Shown piece by piece: positions 1-9,707 of a stretch of 9,908 nucleotides of DNA. This DNA comes from Treponema sp. (GTDB lineage: Bacteria > Spirochaetota > Spirochaetia > Treponematales > Breznakiellaceae). Each line of letters opens with the position of its first letter. The stretch's first letter is position 1. Location of the stretch: NCBI GenBank assembly GCA_031255815.1, contig JAIRRU010000136.1, positions 1 to 9,908 of the forward strand, read 5' to 3'. The position numbers and the translations under genes were made by a program. The notes under the pieces are model-generated. The model was not told the origin of the DNA. It saw nothing but the letters and a program-made list of their open reading frames with translations, and made no database searches.

Positions 1-1
1 C

Positions 2-811
2 GGGTGTATTCATGGATGTATCTATTGTGACGCAAGAAGTAAATGTTATAATATCGACCATGAATTTGAGGATGTGGAAATAAAAATTAACGCCCCTGTG
101 TTGTTGGAACAGAAATTAAAATCCAAACGGAAAAAATGTATGATTGGTACCGGCGCAATGAGCGATCCATATGTTCCTATAACTGAAAATCTGCGTAATG
201 TAAGGACTTGTTTGGAAATAATAGAAAAATACGGATTTGGGCTGGCAATTCAAACAAAATCAAATTTAATACTGAATGATATGGATTTGTTAATAAAAAT
301 CAACAAAAACGCGAAATGTATTGTGGAAATAACCCTTACAACATTTGACGAAAAATTATGCAAAATAATAGAACCGAATGTATCCACAACAAAAGAACGG
401 TTTGAAGTATTAAAAATAATGCGGGATAATAACATTCAGACCATAGTATGGTTAAGCCCGGTATTGCCATTTATAAATGATACGAAAGAAAATTTGATTG
501 GAATACTGGACTATTGTATAGTGGCAGGGGTATACGGGATAATATGTTTTGAAATGGGGTTGACCTTACGGGAAGGGGACAGGGAATATTACTATAAAAA
601 TCTTGATAAAAGTTTTCCCGGAATAAAGGAAAAATATATAAAACGATACGGAAATAATTATATACTAACCAGCGATAACAACAAAGAACTAATGGGAATA
701 TTTAATAAAACATGCGATGAAAATAGTATAGTACATGATGTAAAAGAATTATTTAATTATATGTATACATATGAAGAAAAAAATAAAAAAGGGCAATTGG
801 AATTATTCTGA
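2..811 (+). CDS. Radical SAM protein, spore photoproduct lyase-like (SPL/COG1533) family, 5'-truncated
   Basis: The reading frame is open from base 2 to a TGA at 809-811, so the gene begins before the window; the GTG at 74 is internal. The second to ninth visible codons give C-I-H-G-C-I-Y-C, the CxxxCxxC motif that binds the [4Fe-4S] cluster of radical SAM enzymes. Next come G-A-M-S-D-P-Y-V-P, an R-T-C-L-E-I-I helix, Q-T-K-S, E-I-T-L-T-T, I-E-P-N and P-V-L-P-F-I-N-D, a series typical of SPL-like radical SAM proteins often annotated as DNA repair photolyase. Family members cleave S-adenosylmethionine to start radical chemistry. The substrate here cannot be told, and true spore photoproduct lyase is unlikely outside spore formers. 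The gene is clearly AT-rich with many ATA and AAA codons, while the rest of the window is GC-rich, which points to horizontal acquisition. Family assignment is firm; function is not. Confidence 0.85.
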   Translation, partial: GCIHGCIYCDARSKCYNIDHEFEDVEIKINAPVLLEQKLKSKRKKCMIGTGAMSDPYVPITENLRNVRTCLEIIEKYGFGLAIQTKSNLILNDMDLLIKINKNAKCIVEITLTTFDEKLCKIIEPNVSTTKERFEVLKIMRDNNIQTIVWLSPVLPFINDTKENLIGILDYCIVAGVYGIICFEMGLTLREGDREYYYKNLDKSFPGIKEKYIKRYGNNYILTSDNNKELMGIFNKTCDENSIVHDVKELFNYMYTYEEKNKKGQLELF

Positions 812-1172: not shown

Positions 1173-3134
1173 CTAATGGGTAAATTTCAGGGTAAAGGCC
1201 AGCTTCCAGCTTTCCCCGGGTTTGACGGCCGCCGGGAAAAACGGCATAACGCAGGATGACTGGTAGAGGCCCGGGCCGCCCCAGGTTTCCGGCGCGGTTC
1301 TTCGGGAAAAAATCCAGGCGCTAAAGGGCCTGTCCGCGCCCAGGCTGATGATCGCTTCGTTTTTAAGATCCTGGAATTTAAGGAGATCCGTGTCCCGCGC
1401 CGCCAGAACGTTTCCCCCCAAAGCGCCCTCCCCGGTTTCGGGTTTCAAGACCCCCGCGCCTTTAAGAACCCGCACGAAGTTTTCCCCCTCCCCGGGGAAG
1501 GACAGATCGATGCTGGAAGCGAAAAGAAAACCGGCTTCTTCCCTTCCCGTGTTGGACAGGGTGTAGTTTACCGTCAGCGTGTCCCGGTGGAGGCGGTAGC
1601 TTTTCTCCACGCCCAGGGCGCGGAAGGGCCCTCCCCCCGGGGTTTCGGCAGCGGGGGGGAGGTAAAAGGAGGCCTTCCCCCGCGCCTTGTCCATCTCCCT
1701 CAGGTCAAAGCGTTCCTCCCCGCAGTCCCGGATCCCGTCGTTCCGGCCGGAAAGGATATCCGCGGGGGAAAAATCAGCGGGCAGGATCCGGTCGGTAAAG
1801 GCGGCTTTCCGATTCCGCCTCCCCCTGGGGCCGGGTTCCGGCTGATCGAAGGTGTCCAGGTAGTTCCAGGAATTGGGCAGGTAATCCAGTTCAAAGACAC
1901 CCGCCCCCAAAAGCCGGACGTAGCAGTTGATCCTGTCGCCCCGGAAGAGGTATTCGGTCTCATTATCAAAATCGAAATCAAAATTCATCAGGGAAGGGAT
2001 AAAATCCCCCGCCTCGCGGGTTATCTTTTCCGCCTCCAGAAGGGCCTTGTACGCGGATCGCCTGATCGCCGGGCGGTATATGCCCCCGTTTTCCGCGGGA
2101 TAAAAAACATCGATCCCCTGGGCCTTCCAGAGTTCCTCCAGGGCGGTCCGCTTACGGGACTTGTCCCCCCGGAGCTGGTTTGCCAGGGTATGGGAAAAGA
2201 TCATCTTGGAGTAAATCCCGTTTGCCTCGGGGTAGTCCAGGAGGTACTGCCGCAGGAAAAGCCGCCCGCCGTTCTTCCCGTTCCCGCCCCCCTCCATGGA
2301 ACTGGGGAAACAGGCCCGTACAAGATCCCGGCGGCCTTTAAGATAGCGGCCCGGGCTGGTAAATTCCAGGAAAGATTCGCAGGAGTAAAGGCCCTCGAAG
2401 AATTCCTGCCAGAAAAGTTCCGCCTCCCCCGGGTTTTTAAGTTCCCCGGAAAGCTGATCCGGATTGTCCGGCAGAAGGCGGCCGGGGCCCGGGAACACGG
2501 AAACCAGCCAGTCCCGGCCGGCCGGAAGGGCGGCGGCCATTTTTTCCAGAGCCGCCCGGGGCCTGTTGCCCCAAAGCGGGTCGCCGGTCTGTCCCTGCAC
2601 CGGAAAGACCGCGATGAGCTTTCCCTGATCCTCGCTGATACAGGGGGCGTAGAGATCCCTGCCGGAAAGCCCCGCCAGGGCGAACTGGCTTTCGCTTAAA
2701 AAAGTATAAGCTATACCGCAGCTTGCCAGGGAAGCCACCAGGTTTTGCTCCCAGTCCATGGCAGGTATCCAGCAGCCCTGGGGTTTCTTCCCGAAACGCT
2801 TGCGCAGGTAGGTGGTCAAAAGCTCCACCTGGCCTATCCTGTCCTGCTGGGGGATGACGGAGAACAGGGGCTCGTAAAAGCCGCCGCCCAGGATCTCCAC
2901 CTGCTTGGCGGAGACCAGATCCTCGATAAACACGAGAAACTCGGGGTATACCCGTTCCAGCCAGTTGAGCAGGGTTCCCGAACAGTGGAGGGTTCCCTGT
3001 ATTTTGGGAAACTTAAAGAGTGTCGAGATAAAGGGGCGCAGCCGGAGCGTATAGACTTTTTCGAATTCCTCATCCCCCGCCCCGTAAGGGACATGAAAAT
3101 GAGCGCCCACTATAATATGCAATTTTCCGGCCAT
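1173..3134 (-). CDS. GH57-family (4-alpha-glucanotransferase/alpha-amylase type) protein, apparently lacking the catalytic residues
   Basis: This 653-residue protein has the GH57 plan: N-terminal (beta/alpha)7-type barrel, a helical DUF1925-like part (about 295-370, with L-W-K-A-Q then G-G-I-Y-R-P-A-I-R-R) and a DUF1926-like beta domain (about 380-653). Length fits the 4-alpha-glucanotransferase branch. Motif 1 is H-F-H-V-P (12-16). Motif 2 is K-Q-V-E-I-L-G-G-G-F-Y-E-P (77-89). At motif 3, where the family has W-L-x-E-R-V-W with the nucleophile Glu, this protein has W-I-P-A-M-D-W (122-128), so the Glu position is Ala125. At motif 4, normally D-D-G-E-K-F-G with the acid/base Asp, it reads F-P-G-P-G-R-L (214-220). 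Both acids thus seem lost, and a binding or regulatory role on alpha-glucan is likelier than catalysis. The ATG at 3134 places motif 1 at the usual distance; a weak AGGA lies 12 bases upstream. There is no signal peptide, so it is probably cytoplasmic. It lies on the same strand as the Rnf-like operon, 267 bases downstream, probably as a separate unit. Confidence 0.85.
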   Translation of the reverse strand: MAGKLHIIVGAHFHVPYGAGDEEFEKVYTLRLRPFISTLFKFPKIQGTLHCSGTLLNWLERVYPEFLVFIEDLVSAKQVEILGGGFYEPLFSVIPQQDRIGQVELLTTYLRKRFGKKPQGCWIPAMDWEQNLVASLASCGIAYTFLSESQFALAGLSGRDLYAPCISEDQGKLIAVFPVQGQTGDPLWGNRPRAALEKMAAALPAGRDWLVSVFPGPGRLLPDNPDQLSGELKNPGEAELFWQEFFEGLYSCESFLEFTSPGRYLKGRRDLVRACFPSSMEGGGNGKNGGRLFLRQYLLDYPEANGIYSKMIFSHTLANQLRGDKSRKRTALEELWKAQGIDVFYPAENGGIYRPAIRRSAYKALLEAEKITREAGDFIPSLMNFDFDFDNETEYLFRGDRINCYVRLLGAGVFELDYLPNSWNYLDTFDQPEPGPRGRRNRKAAFTDRILPADFSPADILSGRNDGIRDCGEERFDLREMDKARGKASFYLPPAAETPGGGPFRALGVEKSYRLHRDTLTVNYTLSNTGREEAGFLFASSIDLSFPGEGENFVRVLKGAGVLKPETGEGALGGNVLAARDTDLLKFQDLKNEAIISLGADRPFSAWIFSRRTAPETWGGPGLYQSSCVMPFFPAAVKPGESWKLAFTLKFTH

Positions 3135-3401: not shown

Positions 3402-3992
3402 TCAGCCCAAGGCCCTGAAAAACAGCGCCGCCACGGAAGCAAAAACAAGGGACATGATGCCCAGGGCGATAAGCGCCAGGGGGCTTCCCCTTAAAAAACG
3501 GGGAACAGCCTCAAAATCGGCCCGGCGGCGGATCTCCTCCAGGGCAAGGGCCGGGAACAGTATCCCCAAAACAAAGGAAAAGGCAAGCGCCGCCGCCTCC
3601 AGGGTATTGGCCGCCGTGTGCAGGGTCAGAAAAAGGGCGGCGGGAATCAGGCCCTCGTAGGCGCTGACGGTTCTGAAAACAGGCGCCCAGTCCCATTTCC
3701 GGGGGAGAAAACGCCTGAAAAGAGCCTCAAAACCAGCGCAAACCGGGACGCTGAGGGGGAAAATAAGGATGAAGCGGAAAAAACCGAGCCTCAGAGGCCC
3801 CAGGAGGAAGGTAAAAACAAGCCACAGAACCAGAACCGACAGGAAGATCACCCCCCCCTCCAGAAGGCGGAAGGCGCAGCAGGCCCTGTGCTCCTTCTTT
3901 TCCACCGCCAGGGCCCGGATCCCCAGGCCGAAGCGGAGAACCAGATTACAGGCCAGGGCCGCGAAAAGCCCCAGTCCGGCCAGGGTACTCAC
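3402..3992 (-). CDS. rnfA: RnfA-like membrane subunit of a diverged Rnf complex, lacking the [2Fe-2S] cysteines
   Basis: A 196-residue, very hydrophobic protein with about six membrane segments, the usual RnfA/NqrE length. It keeps family marks: N-L-V-L-R-F-G-L-G-I (16-25, like N-F-V-L-x-x-F-L-G-I), and F-L-R-G-S-P-L-A-L-I-A-L-G-I-M-S-L-V-F (166-184). In RnfA/NqrE one Cys follows the first motif (G-I-C-P) and a second lies in T-T-N-C-A; together with two Cys of RnfE/NqrD they hold an intramembrane [2Fe-2S] cluster. Here the first position is Arg26, and there is no Cys after residue 85, so the second is absent. The GTG start is fixed by AGGAGG seven bases upstream and a 4-base GTGA overlap with the rnfE-like stop. 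It is the last gene of the operon; the usual rnfB does not follow. Family call is good, electron transfer is doubtful. Confidence 0.75.
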   Translation of the reverse strand: MSTLAGLGLFAALACNLVLRFGLGIRALAVEKKEHRACCAFRLLEGGVIFLSVLVLWLVFTFLLGPLRLGFFRFILIFPLSVPVCAGFEALFRRFLPRKWDWAPVFRTVSAYEGLIPAALFLTLHTAANTLEAAALAFSFVLGILFPALALEEIRRRADFEAVPRFLRGSPLALIALGIMSLVFASVAALFFRALG

Positions 3993-4615
3993 CGGCCTTC
4001 CTCCTGCCGGAAGATCTCCAGCCGTCTAAAGAGAACGATCCCGTAGCCCAGAAGGAACAGCGCCCCGGGGGCGGCGGCTATTATCCTGATGGGGAAAAAG
4101 GCCTCCTCCTCCGCGATAAAGAGGAAAAAGATCCCCTCCGGGCCGCCGGGCAGGGAAAGGGTGCAGAAGCCCAGGGGCTCCCGGATAAACGCGAAGACAA
4201 GGATCAGCGCCGAAAGGCTGAGCGCTTCGGAGTATGCCTTGGACAGAATATCCGCCGGGCTGAGGCTTTCAGTCCGATCCAGTATGCCCGAAGCCATACA
4301 GCAGATCGGGGTAAGGAAAAGGATAAAAAAGGTCTCCAATACCAGGAAGGGGCTGATAAACCAGAGGAGCAGGTCGTATACGCTGGCTATGACCGAAACC
4401 AAGAGCGCCAGGATCCACCGCTTCCCCTTCCGGGGCAGTATCCGGCCGGCCGCGCCGTGGACAAGGGCCGACAGGGCATAGACCCAGAGCAGGGAACCGG
4501 CGGCAACCAGGGCGAAGGCGAGCCTTCCGGAGGAAAGGATAAGGACGCTGCTGCCTATCAGGCTGTTCAGGGGCGAGCGGCTGCCCCAAAAATTGCCGCC
4601 CTCATTCAAATTCAC
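3989..4615 (-). CDS. rnfE: RnfE-like membrane subunit of a diverged Rnf complex
   Basis: A 208-residue protein with about six membrane segments, placed between the rnfG- and rnfA-like genes as in standard rnfCDGEA order. Family-like stretches are S-P-L-N-S-L-I-G-S-S-V-L (14-25, matching N-P-V-x-V-Q-x-L-G-L-C-P-x-L), T-P-I-C-C-M-A-S-G (102-110, matching V-T-N-C-A-I-x-G), A-F-I-R-E-P-L-G (142-149, the conserved I-R-E-x-L-G) and A-A-P-G-A-L-F-L-L-G-Y (181-191, matching P-P-G-A-F-x-x-L-G). The first cluster Cys is replaced by Ser (22 or 23), while Cys105 or Cys106 remains at the second site. The GTG start at 4615 overlaps the preceding stop by four bases and has GGGGAGG about six bases upstream. 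The protein should sit in the inner membrane with the RnfA-like partner. It is diverged enough that automatic annotation may call it hypothetical. Confidence 0.72.
   Translation of the reverse strand: MNLNEGGNFWGSRSPLNSLIGSSVLILSSGRLAFALVAAGSLLWVYALSALVHGAAGRILPRKGKRWILALLVSVIASVYDLLLWFISPFLVLETFFILFLTPICCMASGILDRTESLSPADILSKAYSEALSLSALILVFAFIREPLGFCTLSLPGGPEGIFFLFIAEEEAFFPIRIIAAAPGALFLLGYGIVLFRRLEIFRQEEGR
4000..4005 (-). promoter_or_regulatory. Ribosome binding site fixing the rnfA-like GTG start
   Basis: Minus strand AGGAGG, seven bases before the GTG at 3992. It lies inside the end of the rnfE-like gene and decides the start, since the start codon overlaps that gene's stop. Similar strong sites precede the rnfD-, rnfG- and rnfE-like starts, which shows that the whole set is under selection for translation. 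Confidence 0.75.
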
Positions 4616-5073
4616 CGCCGGCCTCCCCTTCTTATCAGTTCCTCGTCCGCCTCTATCCGGCGGATATATATCTTCAGGATTCCCGGAGGAATACGATCGA
4701 AAACCTGTTGCCCGTGGTTCCCCAGGGGGATGAGCCGATCCACCTTCCCCTGGCTGTCCAGGAGCGCCCCAACGGGCAGGGCGGCCCCCTCGTTAAGGAG
4801 GGGGAAGATAAGCATGGTTCCGGCTGAATCCGTCAGGCTGAAACGCCGGCCCAGGGCTTCGCGGCCGGAAAACTGCCGGGGCAGGGGCTCCGAAAGGCGG
4901 ACGCTCTCCTTCCGGGCGGCCAAAGAGTGGTTTGCCGCCTGGATCAGCCTGAAATCCCTTACCGATCCGGTAAGGATCCAGAGCAGCGCCCCGGTAAGAA
5001 CAAGCCCGCCTATCCAGCCCCCCAGGATCGCCGTATCCTTCATTTTCAGGCCCGGAAAGTCAAAAAAACTCAT
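4612..5073 (-). CDS. Short RnfG-like membrane-anchored protein without the flavin-attachment segment
   Basis: A 153-residue protein in the rnfG slot between rnfD- and rnfE-like genes. One membrane anchor (about 15-36) is followed by a domain expected outside the cytoplasmic membrane. Residues 101-120, V-G-A-L-L-D-S-Q-G-K-V-D-R-L-I-P-L-G-N-H, resemble the first part of the FMN-binding domain (I-D-x-x-G-K-I-x-x-V-x-V-L-x-H), but E-T-P-G-L-G is absent and the protein ends about where the second half with S-G-A-T, the covalent FMN threonine site, would start. RnfG is usually around 180-220 residues. So this is RnfG by place and layout, not by cofactor. The ATG at 5073 has AGGGGG seven bases upstream and a 4-base ATGA overlap with the rnfD-like stop; the end overlaps the rnfE-like start by four bases. 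The tight coupling argues for a selected short form rather than a frameshift. It could also be an unrelated replacement. Confidence 0.6.
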   Translation of the reverse strand: MSFFDFPGLKMKDTAILGGWIGGLVLTGALLWILTGSVRDFRLIQAANHSLAARKESVRLSEPLPRQFSGREALGRRFSLTDSAGTMLIFPLLNEGAALPVGALLDSQGKVDRLIPLGNHGQQVFDRIPPGILKIYIRRIEADEELIRRGGRR

Positions 5074-6203
5074 ACGGGAACCCCCTTAGGCCCGGCGGGG
5101 GAGGCCCCGGAAGGAAGGAAAGCCTGCCCGCGCTGCCGCCGGGAATAGAGGAACCGATCCTCCAGAAGCCGGATAAGAGGGGTAAGGGCGTTTACCAGGG
5201 CTACGGCGAAGAAGGCCCCGTAGGGCTCGGCGCCCGGATAGCGGAAAACGAATGAAAACAGAGCCCCGAGAAACACCGTCACCAATATTCCCGCGCTGGA
5301 TTTGGCCCCGGTAACGGGATCCGCCATAAGGAGGAAAGCCGCCGCCAAAGTCCCCCCGGAAAAGAACCCGAAAAGAACGTCCCCGCTTCCCGGCGGCCCT
5401 CCGTAGAAGATCCCGCCGAATATCCGGATAAGCAGGGCGTAGGTCCCCAGGTAAACCGCGGGAATCCAGGGGCGGATCGCCTGGGAGGCAACGATAACCG
5501 CGGTTCCCAGAAACAAAGCGGCAATGCCCCTGTCGGCGATTATGCCCGGATCGCGGGAGAAAAAGAGCGAGATATAACCCGGGGGGAGTTCCGATCCGGT
5601 AAGGGAAAAGATGCCGCGGTTAAGAAAGCCCGTTACCGCCGCGTCTATTCCCGAAAAGGAGGAGCCCCCGGCGTTCAGCCTGAGAATTCCCAGCGGGGAA
5701 CCCTGGGGGTCGCTCAGGCCCTGCCCCAAGGCCGCGGACAGGGCCGAAAAGGAGGAGTTTTCCAGGGCGGCGTCAAAGGCATGGGGCCAGGAAAGGCGGA
5801 CGAAAAGCCAGGCCCCCAGGGCGGGGTTCATCCAGTTCGCGCCTAATCCCCCAAAGCTAAACTTGACCAGCAGCATGGCAAAAACCACCCCCGCCGCCGC
5901 GTACAGGGGATTGATCTGGTTGGGCAAAAGCAGGGTAAGAATCATGGCCGACGCGGCGGCGCTCCCGTCGGAGACCCTGCCGCCGGGCAGGGCGCCTTCC
6001 CGGCGGAAAAAATGCTGCGCCCAGAATTCGACGCCCAAGGCGGTAATCAGGGCGGCCAGGGCTAATTCAAGGGAGATGAAACGATCCGTCCAGGACGATT
6101 GCAGCACGGCGGCGCCCGTGCAGGAACACACCAGGAACATACGCAGGGGCGTCGAACGGGCAAGATTAACCTGGGGGTTCTGTTTAATCAGGGTATTCTG
6201 CAC
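5070..6203 (-). CDS. rnfD: RnfD-like membrane subunit (RnfD/NqrB family)
   Basis: A 377-residue protein with roughly ten membrane segments. The family signature F-G-G-L-G-A-N-W-M-N-P-A-L (117-129) followed by L-S-W-P is clear. Also family-like are W-I-P-A-V-Y-L-G-T (246-254), F-S-G-G-T-L-A-A-A-F-L-L-M-A-D-P-V-T (281-298) and V-N-A-L-T-P-L-I-R (337-345). RnfD normally carries FMN bound by phosphoester to a Thr in S-G-A-T, in a loop soon after the signature. In that loop this protein shows S-A-L-S (153-156) and S-G-I-D (184-187), not S-G-A-T. An S-G-A-S occurs only in the C-terminal tail (365-368), an unlikely place. The start is GTG at 6203, one base after the rnfC stop, with GGGGAGGG six bases upstream. 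In ordinary Rnf, RnfD is thought to take part in ion transport; whether it does here is open. Confidence 0.85.
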   Translation of the reverse strand: MQNTLIKQNPQVNLARSTPLRMFLVCSCTGAAVLQSSWTDRFISLELALAALITALGVEFWAQHFFRREGALPGGRVSDGSAAASAMILTLLLPNQINPLYAAAGVVFAMLLVKFSFGGLGANWMNPALGAWLFVRLSWPHAFDAALENSSFSALSAALGQGLSDPQGSPLGILRLNAGGSSFSGIDAAVTGFLNRGIFSLTGSELPPGYISLFFSRDPGIIADRGIAALFLGTAVIVASQAIRPWIPAVYLGTYALLIRIFGGIFYGGPPGSGDVLFGFFSGGTLAAAFLLMADPVTGAKSSAGILVTVFLGALFSFVFRYPGAEPYGAFFAVALVNALTPLIRLLEDRFLYSRRQRGQAFLPSGASPAGPKGVPV

Positions 6204-6204
6204 T

Positions 6205-7509
6205 TTAGCCCTCCCCGGAAGCGTTCAGGATGACGCTTGAAAGGGGGAGGCGGGAGGGGCACACCACATCGCAGCAGCCGCAGCCGTGACATTCCCCCAG
6301 CCAGCCGCCCGCGGGAGGCTGGAAGTTCCCGCCCTCGATTTTTTTAAAGAGCTCCTCCGGATCAAGCCCCACCGGGCAGACCGTCCGGCAGTCGCCGCAG
6401 CCGATGCAGTTCTGGGGGGCGCTTTTTTTGGACTGGTTTTCCAGAATGGCAAAAACCGCGAAACTGGTCTTAACAATCGGTTCATCCAAATCAACCACCC
6501 TCTGGCCCAAAAGGGGGGAGCCGGTGGCGATCCGTTTCGGCTTTTCGATAAAACCCCCGCACTCGTCAAAGACCTCGCCTATCCGCGTGCCAATCCGCAC
6601 CCTCATTACCTGGGGGCGCCTGACCGCGGAGCCGCCCACGCTTACATAACGATCCAGAATGGGTTTCTTCAACCTTACCGCGTCATAAACCGCCGCCAGG
6701 GTCGCGGGCCCCAATATAAAGAGGGAATCCAGCGCAACAGATTCCTTTTTCTCGTAGCTTCGCAGGATCAGCTCCAGTTCCCGGCGGTTCCGCTGGGGGT
6801 ACCGGGATCCGGTCAGCACCAGGGAAACGGGAATATCGTAATTGCCCGCCTCGGCGAGAAACAGGTTCCCCAGATCCTTTTTCTGCCGGGAAACGGCAAA
6901 CACAAGGCGCCGGGCGCCCGTCATGTTTGCCGCGATAACGCCGCCTTCCACCACCGCCTTGAACCTTTCCCGGCAAAGCGCGTAATCCGCCGCCAGCCAG
7001 GGATCGTCAAACACGCAGCGGACAACCAGGCTCAGAGGCTCGGGGGAGGATCTTGCGCCCGAAACAATCTCCGACAGGGGGCGGCCGGAACCCTCCATCT
7101 CCACCACGCCATATTCGGATACGATATGCTGAAGTTCGTATGGGGAAAGCCCCGACCAGGGGGAAAGGCCCTCCGCCTTTCCCAGCTTTTCAAAACTCCC
7201 CCCCATGCTGATAACCAGGGCCTCGTTGCTGAGCCCGTTCGCCGTTTTCCAGGAGACCAGGCTAACCACCTTGCCGGGGACGGTGGCATGCACGTTGGCG
7301 GAACCTGTGCCCTGCCCCCGCCCGATAAGCATGCCCTCCTTAACCCGATCCCCTACCGTTACGACAGGATAGGCCCGGCCCCCCGAATGCTGGGTCAAGG
7401 GGATGATCGACAGGCCGGGAAGGCAGGCGGTTACGCTGGAATTTCCGGAGGGAGCCGTGGAATCTTCGAAAGAAAGCCCCCCCCGGGGGAACGAATACAC
7501 TCTCATCAC
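6205..7509 (-). CDS. rnfC: RnfC-like peripheral iron-sulfur subunit with degenerate flavin/NADH site
   Basis: A 434-residue RnfC homologue, probably bound to the cytoplasmic face of the membrane. The N-terminal barrel-sandwich part reads G-D-R-V-K-E-G-M-L-I-G (53-63) and H-A-T-V-P-G-K-V (74-81). An SLBB-like part has G-T-R-I-G-E-V-F-D-E-C-G-G (307-319). Two complete [4Fe-4S] motifs follow: C-I-G-C-G-D-C-R-T-V-C-P (Cys368, 371, 374, 378) and C-H-G-C-G-C-C-D-V-V-C-P-S (Cys407, 410, 413, 417). In normal RnfC, G-V-V-G-M-G-G-A-x-F-P-T forms the nucleotide/flavin site; here it is G-V-V-E-M-E-G-S-G-R-P-L (134-145). The conserved E-C-E-P-Y-L-T-A-D has become V-F-D-D-P-W-L-A-A-D (166-175). Electron carrying is therefore plausible but NADH oxidation by FMN is doubtful. 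The GTG at 7509 overlaps the upstream stop by four bases; an ATG follows directly and could be the true start. Family assignment is firm. Confidence 0.88.
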   Translation of the reverse strand: MMRVYSFPRGGLSFEDSTAPSGNSSVTACLPGLSIIPLTQHSGGRAYPVVTVGDRVKEGMLIGRGQGTGSANVHATVPGKVVSLVSWKTANGLSNEALVISMGGSFEKLGKAEGLSPWSGLSPYELQHIVSEYGVVEMEGSGRPLSEIVSGARSSPEPLSLVVRCVFDDPWLAADYALCRERFKAVVEGGVIAANMTGARRLVFAVSRQKKDLGNLFLAEAGNYDIPVSLVLTGSRYPQRNRRELELILRSYEKKESVALDSLFILGPATLAAVYDAVRLKKPILDRYVSVGGSAVRRPQVMRVRIGTRIGEVFDECGGFIEKPKRIATGSPLLGQRVVDLDEPIVKTSFAVFAILENQSKKSAPQNCIGCGDCRTVCPVGLDPEELFKKIEGGNFQPPAGGWLGECHGCGCCDVVCPSRLPLSSVILNASGEG

Positions 7510-9107
7510 GCGGCTACCCGTTTATCGTTGTACAGGGAAGGCTTTCGTTTTCCCCCGCCCCTGCGGGCAGGGCCGGCAAAGGCGGGTATGCAGATAAGCA
7601 GGGTGCAAAGGGCCGGAAAGAATCCGGCAAGAGAAGAACCGCCGCCTCTGAGGTCATCCGCATCCATAAAAACCTGGTTTTCCAAAAAAGCCATAAATCC
7701 TTCAAGCGAAAAAGGCGGAATATCCCCCTCAAGACCCTGAAGCCCGGGAGAGACATCCGTAATAAGTCCGTCTTGGCCTACATTATAGTGATAATACCCC
7801 GGTTGGGCAAATCCGGCGCCCAGGGGCAGCAGGGAAAAACCGCTCTGGAACAGCGCGTGGGCTTCGTATTCGGCGGCGCTGATGGGCGCGGGCCAGGACT
7901 CCGCTTCCCAGCGGCTTCCCCCGGACAGGGCGGCCTCCGGCTGCCTGATTTCGTCAAGCCAGGCGAGGGGCCGGGGAGGGTCGAAATCGAAGGAGGAGAG
8001 GGAAAAAACCGCCGAAATGAGGGAGGCGCAGGCAAAGGGAAGCATGGTTTTGGGGAACTCGGGCCCGGCCCGGGTCTCCATGATTATCACCGGGACAAAA
8101 GGCACATGCCCCCCCCTGTTCCGGGTCTCCAGCGTGAAATACGAAAAAAAAATTCCCATAAAAGCCGCAAAGCTTCCCGCCGCAAGCAGGGGCCCGGCTT
8201 TCCCCAGCACCGCGGAGAGAACGTAGATCCCGGCAAGGGAAAGCCCGAGGAGCCAGTGGAAACGGTAGGGAAAGCCGCTCCGCCGGATGCCGGCAAGGAA
8301 GCCCCGCTCTTTCCGCCCGAAAGAAGCGGTAAAGCGCAGGGAAAAGCAGATTTCCCGCACCGGCTCCAGGAGCAGCCCCGCCAGCAGGCAGAGGATCGCC
8401 CCCATGGCGAAGCCCGGGGAACCCAGAAGGCTGAGGCCTGCCAGAGGCGGGACCAGGTGGAAGGCCAGCAGGCGGGGGCGGAGCAGGAAACAGAGCCCCA
8501 GCCCGGCCAAAAGGTAACAGAGAAGGTACAGGCCGGAAAAGCCGCGCCCGGCGGCGGCCTTAACGGAGGCCGCGGCGGCCCGGAGCGAGGCCTCCCCGGG
8601 AAAGATCAGGGTGTGGGGGGTCTCCCCCATCAGATCGCGGATCGTCTTTTCCACCGAGCGGTAAAGGGCGGGCCGGAAAACAGCGTCAAAACGCAGGGCC
8701 GAATCGTCAAGGGGGATAAAAAAGTAACGCTTCCCGTTCCGGACAAAGAAAGAGCGGAGCCGCCCGGCAAAACCGTCGTTCCTGGGATCAAAGGCTTCCA
8801 CCCTGTCCTCGTACTGATCCAGGGGAACCCGGATGATCCGGTTAAAATCGTTCAGCAGCACCCACTGGGACGACTCGGACAGGGTCTCCCTGCCGGAGGC
8901 TTCCAGGTTCAGGGCCTGGTTCAGGGCGGCCGCCGTTTCCCGGTCGGCGGCCGCCTGGTCAAGTTCGAGCACCGCGAAAAGCGGCCCTTCCGCCACGCGG
9001 TTCACTGCCGGCGCGGAAACGGGGAAAAGCGCGGCCAGGGCAAAGAGCAGGGCCCCCAGGATCAGGGAACAGAAGCTTAGAACCGGAAGGGGGTTTTTTA
9101 AAACCAT
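7506..9107 (-). CDS. Unrecognised 533-residue multi-pass membrane protein, coupled to rnfC
   Basis: I do not recognise a family. Residues 10-32 form a signal-anchor-like membrane segment. A soluble stretch of about 155 residues follows (35-190), probably outside the membrane, with Q-W-V-L-L-N-D-F-N-R-I-I-R-V-P-L-D-Q-Y-E (81-100) and G-K-R-Y-F-F-I-P-L-D-D-S (125-136). Then come about six hydrophobic segments (191-209, 212-230, 232-249, 283-301, 305-324, 353-371), a second soluble stretch (about 372-490) rich in aromatic residues, and a final membrane segment (495-512) with a basic tail. No cysteine cluster, nucleotide or flavin motif is seen. The stop overlaps the rnfC GTG by four bases and the start follows the DUF212 stop by 12 bases, so it is cotranscribed with and translationally coupled to the Rnf-like genes. 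An accessory or new subunit of that complex is the natural guess. The ATG at 9107 has only a weak AGGG site upstream. Confidence 0.8.
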   Translation of the reverse strand: MVLKNPLPVLSFCSLILGALLFALAALFPVSAPAVNRVAEGPLFAVLELDQAAADRETAAALNQALNLEASGRETLSESSQWVLLNDFNRIIRVPLDQYEDRVEAFDPRNDGFAGRLRSFFVRNGKRYFFIPLDDSALRFDAVFRPALYRSVEKTIRDLMGETPHTLIFPGEASLRAAAASVKAAAGRGFSGLYLLCYLLAGLGLCFLLRPRLLAFHLVPPLAGLSLLGSPGFAMGAILCLLAGLLLEPVREICFSLRFTASFGRKERGFLAGIRRSGFPYRFHWLLGLSLAGIYVLSAVLGKAGPLLAAGSFAAFMGIFFSYFTLETRNRGGHVPFVPVIIMETRAGPEFPKTMLPFACASLISAVFSLSSFDFDPPRPLAWLDEIRQPEAALSGGSRWEAESWPAPISAAEYEAHALFQSGFSLLPLGAGFAQPGYYHYNVGQDGLITDVSPGLQGLEGDIPPFSLEGFMAFLENQVFMDADDLRGGGSSLAGFFPALCTLLICIPAFAGPARRGGGKRKPSLYNDKRVAA

Positions 9108-9119
9108 AGAACGGAAACC

Positions 9120-9608
9120 CTACAAAAACACGAAGGCGGCGGATATAAAGATGCCCAAAAGGCCCCCCACCGCCACCTCCAGCGGCGTATGCCCCTGGAT
9201 TTCCTTTACCGGATGGTATTCCGTATCCAACTTTTCCGACACCTGCCTGCCCAGGATATTGAGAATCCGCGCCTGGATACCCGAAGAACGGCGTACCCCC
9301 ATAGCGTCCCGCAGCACTACCAAGGCGAACCAGAAGGAAAGCTGGAAAATGTTTGAACCCGGCCCCTCCACAAAAGCGAAGGATGTGGCTATGGAACATA
9401 CCAGGGCGGCGTGGCTGGAAGGCATGCCGCCGGTGCGCCAGACCAGGGTCTCCAAAGTATCCCGGAAATTTCTTTTCCGGGAGCTTATCAAGTGAATGAT
9501 CATTTTTAAAAACTGGGCCATACAAAAACTGGTTATTGAGGAAAGAAATATCTGATTTTCCAGAAAAGCCTTAAGCGGCCCCGCCCTTAAAGGCATAGAA
9601 AAAAGCAT
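9120..9608 (-). CDS. DUF212 / YuiD-like membrane protein (acid phosphatase/vanadium haloperoxidase-related)
   Basis: A 162-residue membrane protein in the DUF212 family (Bacillus YuiD type, usually about 150-160 residues). Signatures are A-Q-F-L-K-M-I (31-37), W-R-T-G-G-M-P-S-S-H-A-A (57-68), R-D-A-M-G-V-R-R-S-S-G-I-Q-A (100-113) and G-H-T-P-L-E-V-A-V-G-G-L-L-G (139-152), followed by a C-terminal membrane segment. The M-P-S-S-H and G-H-T motifs resemble the phosphate-binding motifs of PAP2-type phosphatases, so a membrane lipid phosphatase role is possible but unproven. The frame is open up to an ATG at 9707, which would add 33 residues with no ribosome site. I chose the ATG at 9608 because GGAGG (9624-9620) lies 11 bases upstream and the length then fits the family. 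It is the first gene of the Rnf-like operon, 12 bases before the next start. Family call is firm; the link to Rnf rests on position. Confidence 0.85.
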   Translation of the reverse strand: MLFSMPLRAGPLKAFLENQIFLSSITSFCMAQFLKMIIHLISSRKRNFRDTLETLVWRTGGMPSSHAALVCSIATSFAFVEGPGSNIFQLSFWFALVVLRDAMGVRRSSGIQARILNILGRQVSEKLDTEYHPVKEIQGHTPLEVAVGGLLGIFISAAFVFL

Positions 9609-9707
9609 TATACCATGTTCCTCCAAGTAAAGGGGGACTGTCAAGACTCCGCCGGATACGGGGCCGGAACCCCGAAACCCGGCCTCCGGAAAAATCCTCC
9701 GGTTCAT

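What the first reader, a model, noticed from the sequence alone, without database searches (positions are those of the whole stretch)
3402..7509. Rnf-type operon with intact genes but redox sites erased across several subunits
The order C-D-G-E-A, the tight junctions (-4 to +1 bases), strong ribosome sites and family motifs all show a maintained Rnf-derived operon. Yet the flavin/NADH motif of RnfC, the flavin-attachment motifs of RnfD and RnfG, and three of four intramembrane cluster cysteines in RnfA/RnfE look lost. Concerted loss without frame breaks suggests a repurposed complex, for example an ion-flow, transport or assembly machine no longer driven by the usual electron path. I know of no description of such a form.
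Basis: partly seen in the sequence, partly recalled or inferred. Interest (0 to 1): 0.82.

Follow-up and report, generated by a model that had tools for sequence, protein, structure and literature searches.

The report
Rnf pump stripped of electron path
A bacterial membrane machine that normally moves electrons to pump ions has, in treponeme spirochaetes, lost most of its electron-carrying sites while its genes stay intact, and a small genome that matches the syphilis bacterium appears to have only this stripped version.

Summary
Minus-strand genes C-D-G-E-A (3402-7509) are a packed Rnf-derived set. Three of four RnfA/RnfE cluster cysteines, the RnfC FMN/NADH motifs and the RnfD/RnfG flavin motifs are gone, and the window has no RnfB. 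Nearly the same losses recur in 89 distinct gut-treponeme loci and, in another form, in 20 wider Treponema loci. At the same syntenic site other spirochaetes keep a canonical RnfCDGEAB, and intermediates show partial losses. dN/dS below 1 in most comparisons and new lineage-specific invariant motifs argue against decay. In 36 of 40 genomes searched, the non-canonical locus coexists with a canonical rnfA elsewhere. A 1,139,633-bp genome, taken as T. pallidum from size and tp0151 coordinates, has the stripped set and no other RnfA/E match found. This bears on the published flavodoxin-driven Rnf energy model. Function is inferred, not shown: most likely an ion or solute conduit gated by the RnfC clusters.

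The parts
9120..9707 (-). DUF212 (divergent PAP2) gene, first of the row, 12 bases before U
   Evidence: PF02681 141.7 bits; homologue in 64 of 80 loci, upstream of the set
7506..9107 (-). gene U: 533-aa predicted membrane protein with two alpha/beta parts in the model, overlapping rnfC-like by 4 bases; no known family
   Evidence: no Pfam/NCBIfam match (in one search no family matched more than 2 of 79 members); homologue in 67 of 80 loci; AF2 mean pLDDT 83; many but weak RND-transporter matches in Foldseek, none at E 0.001 or better, top hit FtsEX; VIA top row Wzc
6205..7509 (-). RnfC-like protein: barrel-sandwich, 51K-like, SLBB and dicluster ferredoxin domains; FMN/NADH motifs lost
   Evidence: TIGR01945 236.5 bits, just under the 245.95 cut-off; motif alignment
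6247..6414 (-). the two [4Fe-4S] motifs of RnfC-like (CIGCGDCRTVCP and CHGCGCCDVVCP); coordinates counted by hand from the translation
   Evidence: 8 of 8 Cys in 139 of 139 rows and 20 of 20 rows
5070..6203 (-). RnfD-like protein: FMN-Thr motif lost, GxIGE replaced by GIIADRG; riboflavin-contact Asn and Asp equivalents kept
   Evidence: PF03116 173.7 bits
4612..5073 (-). RnfG-like stub, 153 aa, one long helix plus a shortened domain; no FMN attachment motif
3989..4615 (-). RnfE-like protein: first cluster Cys lost (S), second kept (C106)
   Evidence: PF02508 E 4e-4, below cut-off
3402..3992 (-). RnfA-like protein: both cluster Cys lost
   Evidence: TIGR01943 E 8e-13, below cut-off
1173..3134 (-). 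GH57 amylase/glucanotransferase gene, conserved downstream neighbour
   Evidence: PF03065 93 bits; homologue in 69 of 80 loci

Best explanation
An ancestral spirochaete Rnf locus (DUF212-U-C-D-G-E-A-B-GH57) was converted, in the treponeme lineage, into a complex that is no longer a ferredoxin:NAD+ oxidoreductase. SHOWN by sequence: the RnfC FMN/NADH motifs are lost in every non-canonical form read; the RnfA/E [2Fe-2S] cysteines, the FMN sites of RnfD and RnfG, and RnfB were lost to different extents in different lineages; the RnfC [4Fe-4S] cysteines are kept throughout, and the subunits stay mostly under purifying selection. [quoted passage not shown] That is a redox-gated transporter or sensor rather than a redox-driven pump. 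Canonical Rnf activity is carried by a separate canonical operon where there is one.
For: Ligand tallies, duplicates removed: RnfA C25 canonical 32/32, gut 2/88, wider Treponema 0/20; C113 31/32, 1/88, 1/20; RnfE first Cys 32/32, 1/89, 5/20; second 32/32, 43/89, 1/20. RnfC cluster Cys 8/8 in 159 of 159 rows. New lineage-specific invariants: RnfC ..FDD (D in 91/91 gut rows), RnfD GIIADRG (D in 89/90 gut rows) and FR at the same place in the wider group (F 20/20). Order C-D-G-E-A kept in 77 of 80 loci, the full DUF212-U-CDGEA-GH57 row in 52 of 80. dN/dS in 6 close gut pairs: C 0.08-0.28, D 0.16-0.28, E 0.14-0.43, A 0.09-0.39 in 5 pairs. Intermediates at the same site: L171 keeps A/E Cys, RnfD and RnfG Thr and RnfB but not the RnfC motifs; L128/L177 keep A/E Cys and RnfB. 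Tree: gut rows, wider-Treponema rows (with the 3 oral-type rows) and canonical rows are each one side of a branch with support 100. Separate canonical-strength rnfA or RnfA/E in 36 of 40 genomes with a non-canonical locus (25/26; 11/14), against a second copy in 10 of 33 canonical-syntenic genomes (Fisher p 1e-7, not corrected for kinship). RnfA/E architecture is described as reminiscent of H+ or Na+/solute symporters, with a Na+ path proposed through RnfA/E (PMC12174285, PMC11889175, passages).
Against: No activity, cofactor content or interaction was measured. Residues named at the Na+ site of A. woodii RnfA/E are not well kept in the gut clade either (RnfA N112 35/88, RnfE E115 31/89; for RnfA T111 the five commonest letters do not include T), which weakens a Na+ conduit. 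Canonical A/E are far more constrained (dN/dS 0.01-0.09 where finite), so stripped A/E are relaxed; one gut RnfG pair gave 1.33 (alignment ran to 270 aa, past the gene) and one intermediate RnfE pair 0.63. The RnfC clusters could be kept for folding only. U is missing in the T. pallidum-like locus, so it is not essential to the set.
Confidence: 0.55

Rival explanations
1. A short residual electron path: a cytosolic donor reduces the RnfC [4Fe-4S] pair, which exchanges electrons with riboflavin in the cytoplasmic pocket of RnfD and from there with an unknown partner (U, the canonical Rnf, or a small molecule). It would still be a redox enzyme, but a different one.
For: RnfC cluster Cys in 159 of 159 rows; N123 equivalent in 90/90 gut and 18/20 wider rows, D249 equivalent D or E in 90/90 gut rows; an RnfB-like ORF with ferredoxin-type Cys motifs persists in 11 of 20 wider loci.
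Against: Both soluble-carrier ends are missing in the window (no RnfB; no FMN/NADH motifs). In 9 of 20 wider loci the D249 column reads W (alignment there is uncertain). No alternative acceptor site was identified.
Confidence: 0.22
2. Accessory or assembly partner of the canonical Rnf in the same cell, for example a regulatory or mixed complex.
For: Coexistence with canonical-strength RnfA/E in 36 of 40 genomes.
Against: The T. pallidum-like genome G057 has the stripped set and no PF02508 match, and G139 has only its non-canonical rnfA match. G122 and G459 had no PF02508 match either, but their loci were not fetched and gaps in draft genomes are possible.
Confidence: 0.1
3. Canonical Rnf function kept with ligands at shifted positions or supplied by other subunits.
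For: The second RnfE Cys survives in 43 of 89 gut rows; gut RnfA ORFs hold on average 2.9 Cys somewhere. The RnfD motif scan is a weak test: a relaxed pattern finds 26 of 33 canonical and still 11 of 90 gut rows.
Against: No RnfA Cys column reaches half of the rows, and the best one does not go with the RnfE Cys: 22 both, 18 A only, 19 E only, 29 neither. RnfG motif 1 of 90 gut against 29 of 33 canonical rows. No RnfB in the window.
Confidence: 0.05
4. Ordinary decay of a redundant operon after gain of a second Rnf.
For: Redundancy association; raised dN/dS in A, E and G compared with canonical; split RnfC or RnfD ORFs in two wider genomes (L222, L237).
Against: Gene order kept in 77 of 80 loci; dN/dS below 0.5 in C, D, E and A of the six gut pairs; new invariant motifs in each clade; retained in a strongly reduced genome without other Rnf matches.
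Confidence: 0.05

Closest known systems
RnfABCDGE ferredoxin:NAD+ oxidoreductase (structures 9eri A. woodii, 7zc6 C. tetanomorphum, 8ahx A. vinelandii)
   Same: Descent and order of C, D, G, E, A; RnfC domain layout and eight cluster cysteines; RnfD family and two riboflavin-contact residues.
   Different: No RnfB in the window; no RnfC FMN/NADH motifs; no RnfD/RnfG flavin-Thr motifs; three of four [2Fe-2S] Cys lost; RnfG reduced to 153 aa; GxIGE replaced by GIIADRG.
Na+-NQR (NqrABCDEF)
   Same: Shared membrane core by homology (TIGR01937, TIGR01939 and TIGR01940 weak hits).
   Different: No NqrF or NqrA among the nine ORFs scanned; RnfC rather than NqrA; same missing cofactor motifs.
Canonical spirochaete Rnf at the same syntenic site (e.g. 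L124, L170, L174, L196)
   Same: Same neighbours (U, GH57) and same gene order; closest evolutionary counterpart.
   Different: Those have RnfB and the cluster and flavin ligands.
Putative atypical RNF of Treponema pallidum (tp0151 called rnfD in PMC11371664; RNF pump in PMC7512555; passages seen)
   Different: Published as a flavodoxin-driven ion pump; the ligands for that path were not found in the locus read here.

Membership tests
Rnf (ferredoxin:NAD+ oxidoreductase) | Homologous C, D, G, E, A genes in Rnf order | tested here: met
   G by position and weak fold match only
Rnf (ferredoxin:NAD+ oxidoreductase) | RnfB subunit in the operon | tested here: not met
   RnfB model, six frames of the window: best E 0.14; rest of the genome not held; canonical syntenic loci have it
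Rnf (ferredoxin:NAD+ oxidoreductase) | Four Cys for the RnfA/E [2Fe-2S] cluster | tested here: not met
   one of four in the window; tallies; no replacement column
Rnf (ferredoxin:NAD+ oxidoreductase) | Covalent-FMN threonine motifs in RnfD and RnfG | tested here: not met
   the RnfD scan is weaker than the RnfG scan
Rnf (ferredoxin:NAD+ oxidoreductase) | RnfC FMN/NADH-binding motifs (GxGGxGFP, NAAEC; recalled names, columns from the canonical rows) | tested here: not met
   (NAAEC Cys 32/32 canonical rows, Asp 91/91 gut rows)
Rnf (ferredoxin:NAD+ oxidoreductase) | Two [4Fe-4S] motifs in RnfC | tested here: met
Rnf (ferredoxin:NAD+ oxidoreductase) | Curated subunit cut-offs (NCBIfam rnfA, rnfC, rnfD) | tested here: not met
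   49.3 of 229.3, 236.5 of 245.95, 119.1 of 207.05 bits
Rnf (ferredoxin:NAD+ oxidoreductase) | Redox-driven Na+/H+ pumping | not testable with these tools
   needs purified complex
Na+-NQR | NqrF and NqrA subunits | tested here: not met
   not among the nine ORFs scanned; other ORFs of the window not scanned for them
RND superfamily (gene U) | RND fold | tested here: inconclusive

The most novel reading that the evidence does not exclude
Treponemes carry a family-wide, selected, pump-less Rnf: a membrane complex whose transmembrane electron relay was dismantled while its RnfC iron-sulfur pair was kept as the control element of an ion or solute conduit. The syphilis spirochaete has only this form, so the flavodoxin-driven Rnf pump postulated for its energy metabolism would lack the known cofactors.
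Probability: 0.45. Interest if true: 0.9.

Novelty: new variant of a known kind. Interest (0 to 1): 0.8.

Why it matters
It is a well-sampled natural case of an energy-converting redox complex turned into something else, with canonical forms, several intermediates and two divergent end states at one syntenic site. That allows tests of which parts of Rnf are separable from electron transfer (ion path, RnfC clusters, riboflavin pocket). It also makes a debated question directly testable: how Treponema pallidum conserves energy. Papers seen in passages attribute a flavin-based Rnf pump to it (PMC7512555, PMC10194888, PMC11717252, PMC11371664), yet the locus read here lacks the cofactor ligands, and no other RnfA/E match was found in that genome.

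Tried and rejected
Shifted ligands: no conserved replacement Cys in RnfA/E. Misalignment as the cause of 'loss': canonical control rows align at the four cysteines (31-32 of 32), and a motif scan without alignment agrees for RnfG (29 of 33 canonical, 1 of 90 gut); for RnfD it is weak (relaxed pattern 26 of 33 canonical, 11 of 90 gut; the strict pattern finds only 3 of 33 canonical). Local decay: disfavoured. Horizontal replacement of the locus: not favoured, because DUF212, U and GH57 neighbours span canonical and stripped forms; not tested further. Rfam gave nothing. Gene U: no family; the RND-like resemblance is weak, with FtsEX and Wzc as top rows. For the G stub no family stood above RnfG, and the RnfG match itself is weak. 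An RnfA alignment was too diverged for a contig scan, so RnfD was used. Papers: searches (no paper) listed no description of a cofactor-less Rnf; only titles, abstract starts and passages were seen, in an open-licence library. The paper I recalled as the main T. pallidum Rnf proposal (mBio 2015) was not held, so which genes it named is unknown to me. Tree limits: quick method, SH-aLRT only, midpoint root, 27 rows with odd composition; the direction canonical-to-stripped is inferred from the function of Rnf outside spirochaetes, not from the root. Rows dropped or moved: duplicates L166 and L198; L179 (partial, really canonical) was scored as intermediate, counted as canonical and left out; E, A or G rows are missing in some diverged loci (denominators per call). 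7 of the 26 genomes (G366, G374, G352, G264, G357, G032, G166) and 2 of the 14 (G122, G459) were taken as non-canonical from their RnfD score alone. In one search a Fisher table with 37/41 was run; recounting gave 36/40.
Full report
WHAT IS THERE. The minus strand of the window carries a packed row: DUF212 gene (9120-9707), gene U (7506-9107), RnfC-like (6205-7509), RnfD-like (5070-6203), RnfG-like (4612-5073), RnfE-like (3989-4615), RnfA-like (3402-3992), then after 267 bases a GH57 gene (1173-3134). Junctions overlap by 4 bases except C/D (1 base apart) and DUF212/U (12 bases apart). An RnfB model finds nothing in the six frames of the window (best E 0.14).

LIGANDS. Aligned with the canonical Rnf of Breznakiella homolactica (from the same genome that carries the stripped locus L008) and with canonical syntenic loci, the window has lost both RnfA cysteines, one RnfE cysteine, the FMN threonine motifs of D and G, and the RnfC FMN/NADH motifs. 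It keeps all eight RnfC [4Fe-4S] cysteines, one RnfE cysteine (C106), and the RnfD Asn and Asp that correspond to N123 and D249, named as riboflavin contacts in A. woodii RnfD (PMC11889175, passages; correspondence counted by me on the alignment; columns). The kept sites lie on the RnfC/RnfD side that faces the cytoplasm in that structure.

HOW WIDE. A genome-contig scan with an RnfD alignment gave 269 relatives, of which the best 80 loci were kept. C-D-G-E-A order is intact in 77 of 80, and the whole DUF212-to-GH57 row in 52 of 80; shorter rows were not checked one by one for contig ends. A sweep of 392 genomes of the phylum found RnfD matches in 304, and one of 195 genomes of the family of G020 found matches to the T. 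denticola-type RnfD alignment in 191; these counts mix stripped and canonical RnfD. From the first I fetched 59 usable stretches, from the second 20. The 139 loci first scored fall into three states at the same syntenic site, by model score: canonical (32), intermediate or otherwise diverged (16, one of them really canonical) and gut-type stripped (91, two of them duplicates). The 20 later loci form a wider Treponema stripped group, to which the three oral-type rows of the intermediate set belong on the tree.

TALLIES (duplicates removed). RnfA C25: canonical 32/32, intermediate 5/14, gut 2/88, wider 0/20. RnfA C113: 31/32, 5/14, 1/88, 1/20. RnfE first Cys: 32/32, 6/12, 1/89, 5/20. RnfE second Cys: 32/32, 5/12, 43/89, 1/20. 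RnfD GxIGE Glu: 33/33, 10/15, 0/90 (Asp in 89), 0/20 (Phe in 20). RnfD flavin-Thr position: Thr 26 and Ser 7 of 33 canonical, Thr 5 and Ser 62 of 90 gut. RnfC cluster cysteines: 8 of 8 in all 139 rows and all 20. Diverged E, A and G rows make single columns less certain in the wider and intermediate groups.

INTERMEDIATES. L171 has lost only the RnfC FMN/NADH motifs; it keeps RnfA/E cysteines, the RnfD and an RnfG threonine, and RnfB. L128 and L177 keep the A/E cysteines and RnfB. L172 keeps RnfB and the flavin threonines but not the A/E cysteines. Loss of the RnfC motifs is common to all non-canonical rows read. The other losses happened more than once: the tree needs at least 4 changes for RnfA C25, 6 for C113, 8 and 6 for the RnfE cysteines, 13 for RnfB presence, but 2 for the RnfC NAAEC site (on the tree; the partial row L179 is in that count). 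RnfB-like ORFs with ferredoxin-type motifs persist in 11 of the 20 wider loci.

SELECTION. In six close gut pairs dN/dS was 0.08-0.28 for C, 0.16-0.28 for D, 0.14-0.43 for E and 0.09-0.39 for A (five pairs); G was 0.23-0.49 with one value of 1.33 from an over-long alignment. Two further pairs were identical duplicates and failed. Among wider and intermediate pairs with finite values most were below 0.45, with 0.63 for one RnfE pair. In eight canonical pairs A and E were 0.01-0.09 where finite. Purifying selection persists, but its emphasis has moved from A/E to C and D. ORFs were untrimmed at their 5' ends, which raises these values.

SECOND RNF. Of 26 genomes with a non-canonical locus searched with TIGR01943, 25 also hold a canonical-strength rnfA elsewhere (7 of the 26 were assigned from their RnfD score alone). 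Of 14 more searched with PF02508, 11 do (the loci of G122 and G459 were not fetched). Of 33 genomes with a canonical syntenic locus, 10 have a second copy. The contrast is strong (Fisher p 1e-7), but genomes are related and some are incomplete.

TREPONEMA PALLIDUM. G057 is a single contig of 1,139,633 bases whose RnfD-like gene lies at 173910-174908 on the minus strand. PMC7162541 gives 1,139,562 and 1,139,560 bases for two T. pallidum strains and places a tp0151 variant at 174174 (passages). I therefore take G057 as T. pallidum; the handle itself is unnamed. The row there is GH57, A-like, E-like, G-like, D-like, C-like, DUF212, without U and without RnfB (A and G assigned by weak model scores and position). 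RnfC has 8 of 8 cluster cysteines, and none of the four RnfA/E cysteines or RnfC motifs was found. No PF02508 match exists in that genome, although its own stripped A/E also escape that model, and both TIGR01945 matches lie in the one RnfC-like gene. Two FMN_bind matches lie elsewhere. Published papers describe an RNF pump fed by flavodoxin in this organism (PMC7512555, PMC10194888, PMC11717252, passages) and call tp0151 rnfD (PMC11371664, passages). PMC7512555 itself calls the system noncanonical. Relatives named by their source include T. denticola, T. pedis and T. phagedenis and T. primitia.

FUNCTION. Shown: an Rnf-derived, mostly constrained complex without the sites for ferredoxin:NAD+ electron transfer. 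Inferred: the membrane core works as a conduit, with RnfC clusters as gate or sensor. The review PMC12174285 (passages) notes that the RnfA/E architecture is reminiscent of H+ and Na+/solute symporters, which makes a conduit plausible; against it, Na+-site residues named for A. woodii are poorly conserved. A residual RnfC-riboflavin redox path is the main rival.

NOVELTY. Eight paper searches listed no description of such a form, within an open-licence library only. PMC13067680 (passages) reports Rnf in termite-gut spirochaetes without mention of a stripped form in the two passages seen.

Noticed in passing
window 1-811 (+): Partial radical SAM ORF (PA0069/Rv2578c-type matches below cut-off) in DNA of about 30-33% GC, against about 60% for most of the rest; looks like foreign DNA or a chimeric contig end.
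   Followed up: partly
L222 (G289) and L237 (G340): The RnfC-like gene (L222) and the RnfD-like gene (L237) are each found in two ORFs. Possible frameshifts or assembly errors.
   Followed up: no
L224-L226, L228-L230, L232, L234-L236, L238: A shortened RnfB-like ORF with ferredoxin-type cluster motifs sits between the A-like gene and GH57; its role without an RnfA/E cluster is unclear.
   Followed up: partly
G001 (Breznakiella homolactica): 14 FMN_bind matches in one genome, many in open frames of about 580-740 aa: a rich set of possible flavinylated proteins.
   Followed up: no
L058 / L198 (G306): A metagenome assembly titled Treponema denticola carries the gut-type stripped locus, unlike the T. 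denticola-named RnfD; the record title may be wrong.
   Followed up: partly
L124, L170, L174, L196: Gene U matches (20-63 bits) also occur at fully canonical Rnf operons, so U may predate the loss of redox sites and be an unrecognised Rnf partner.
   Followed up: partly
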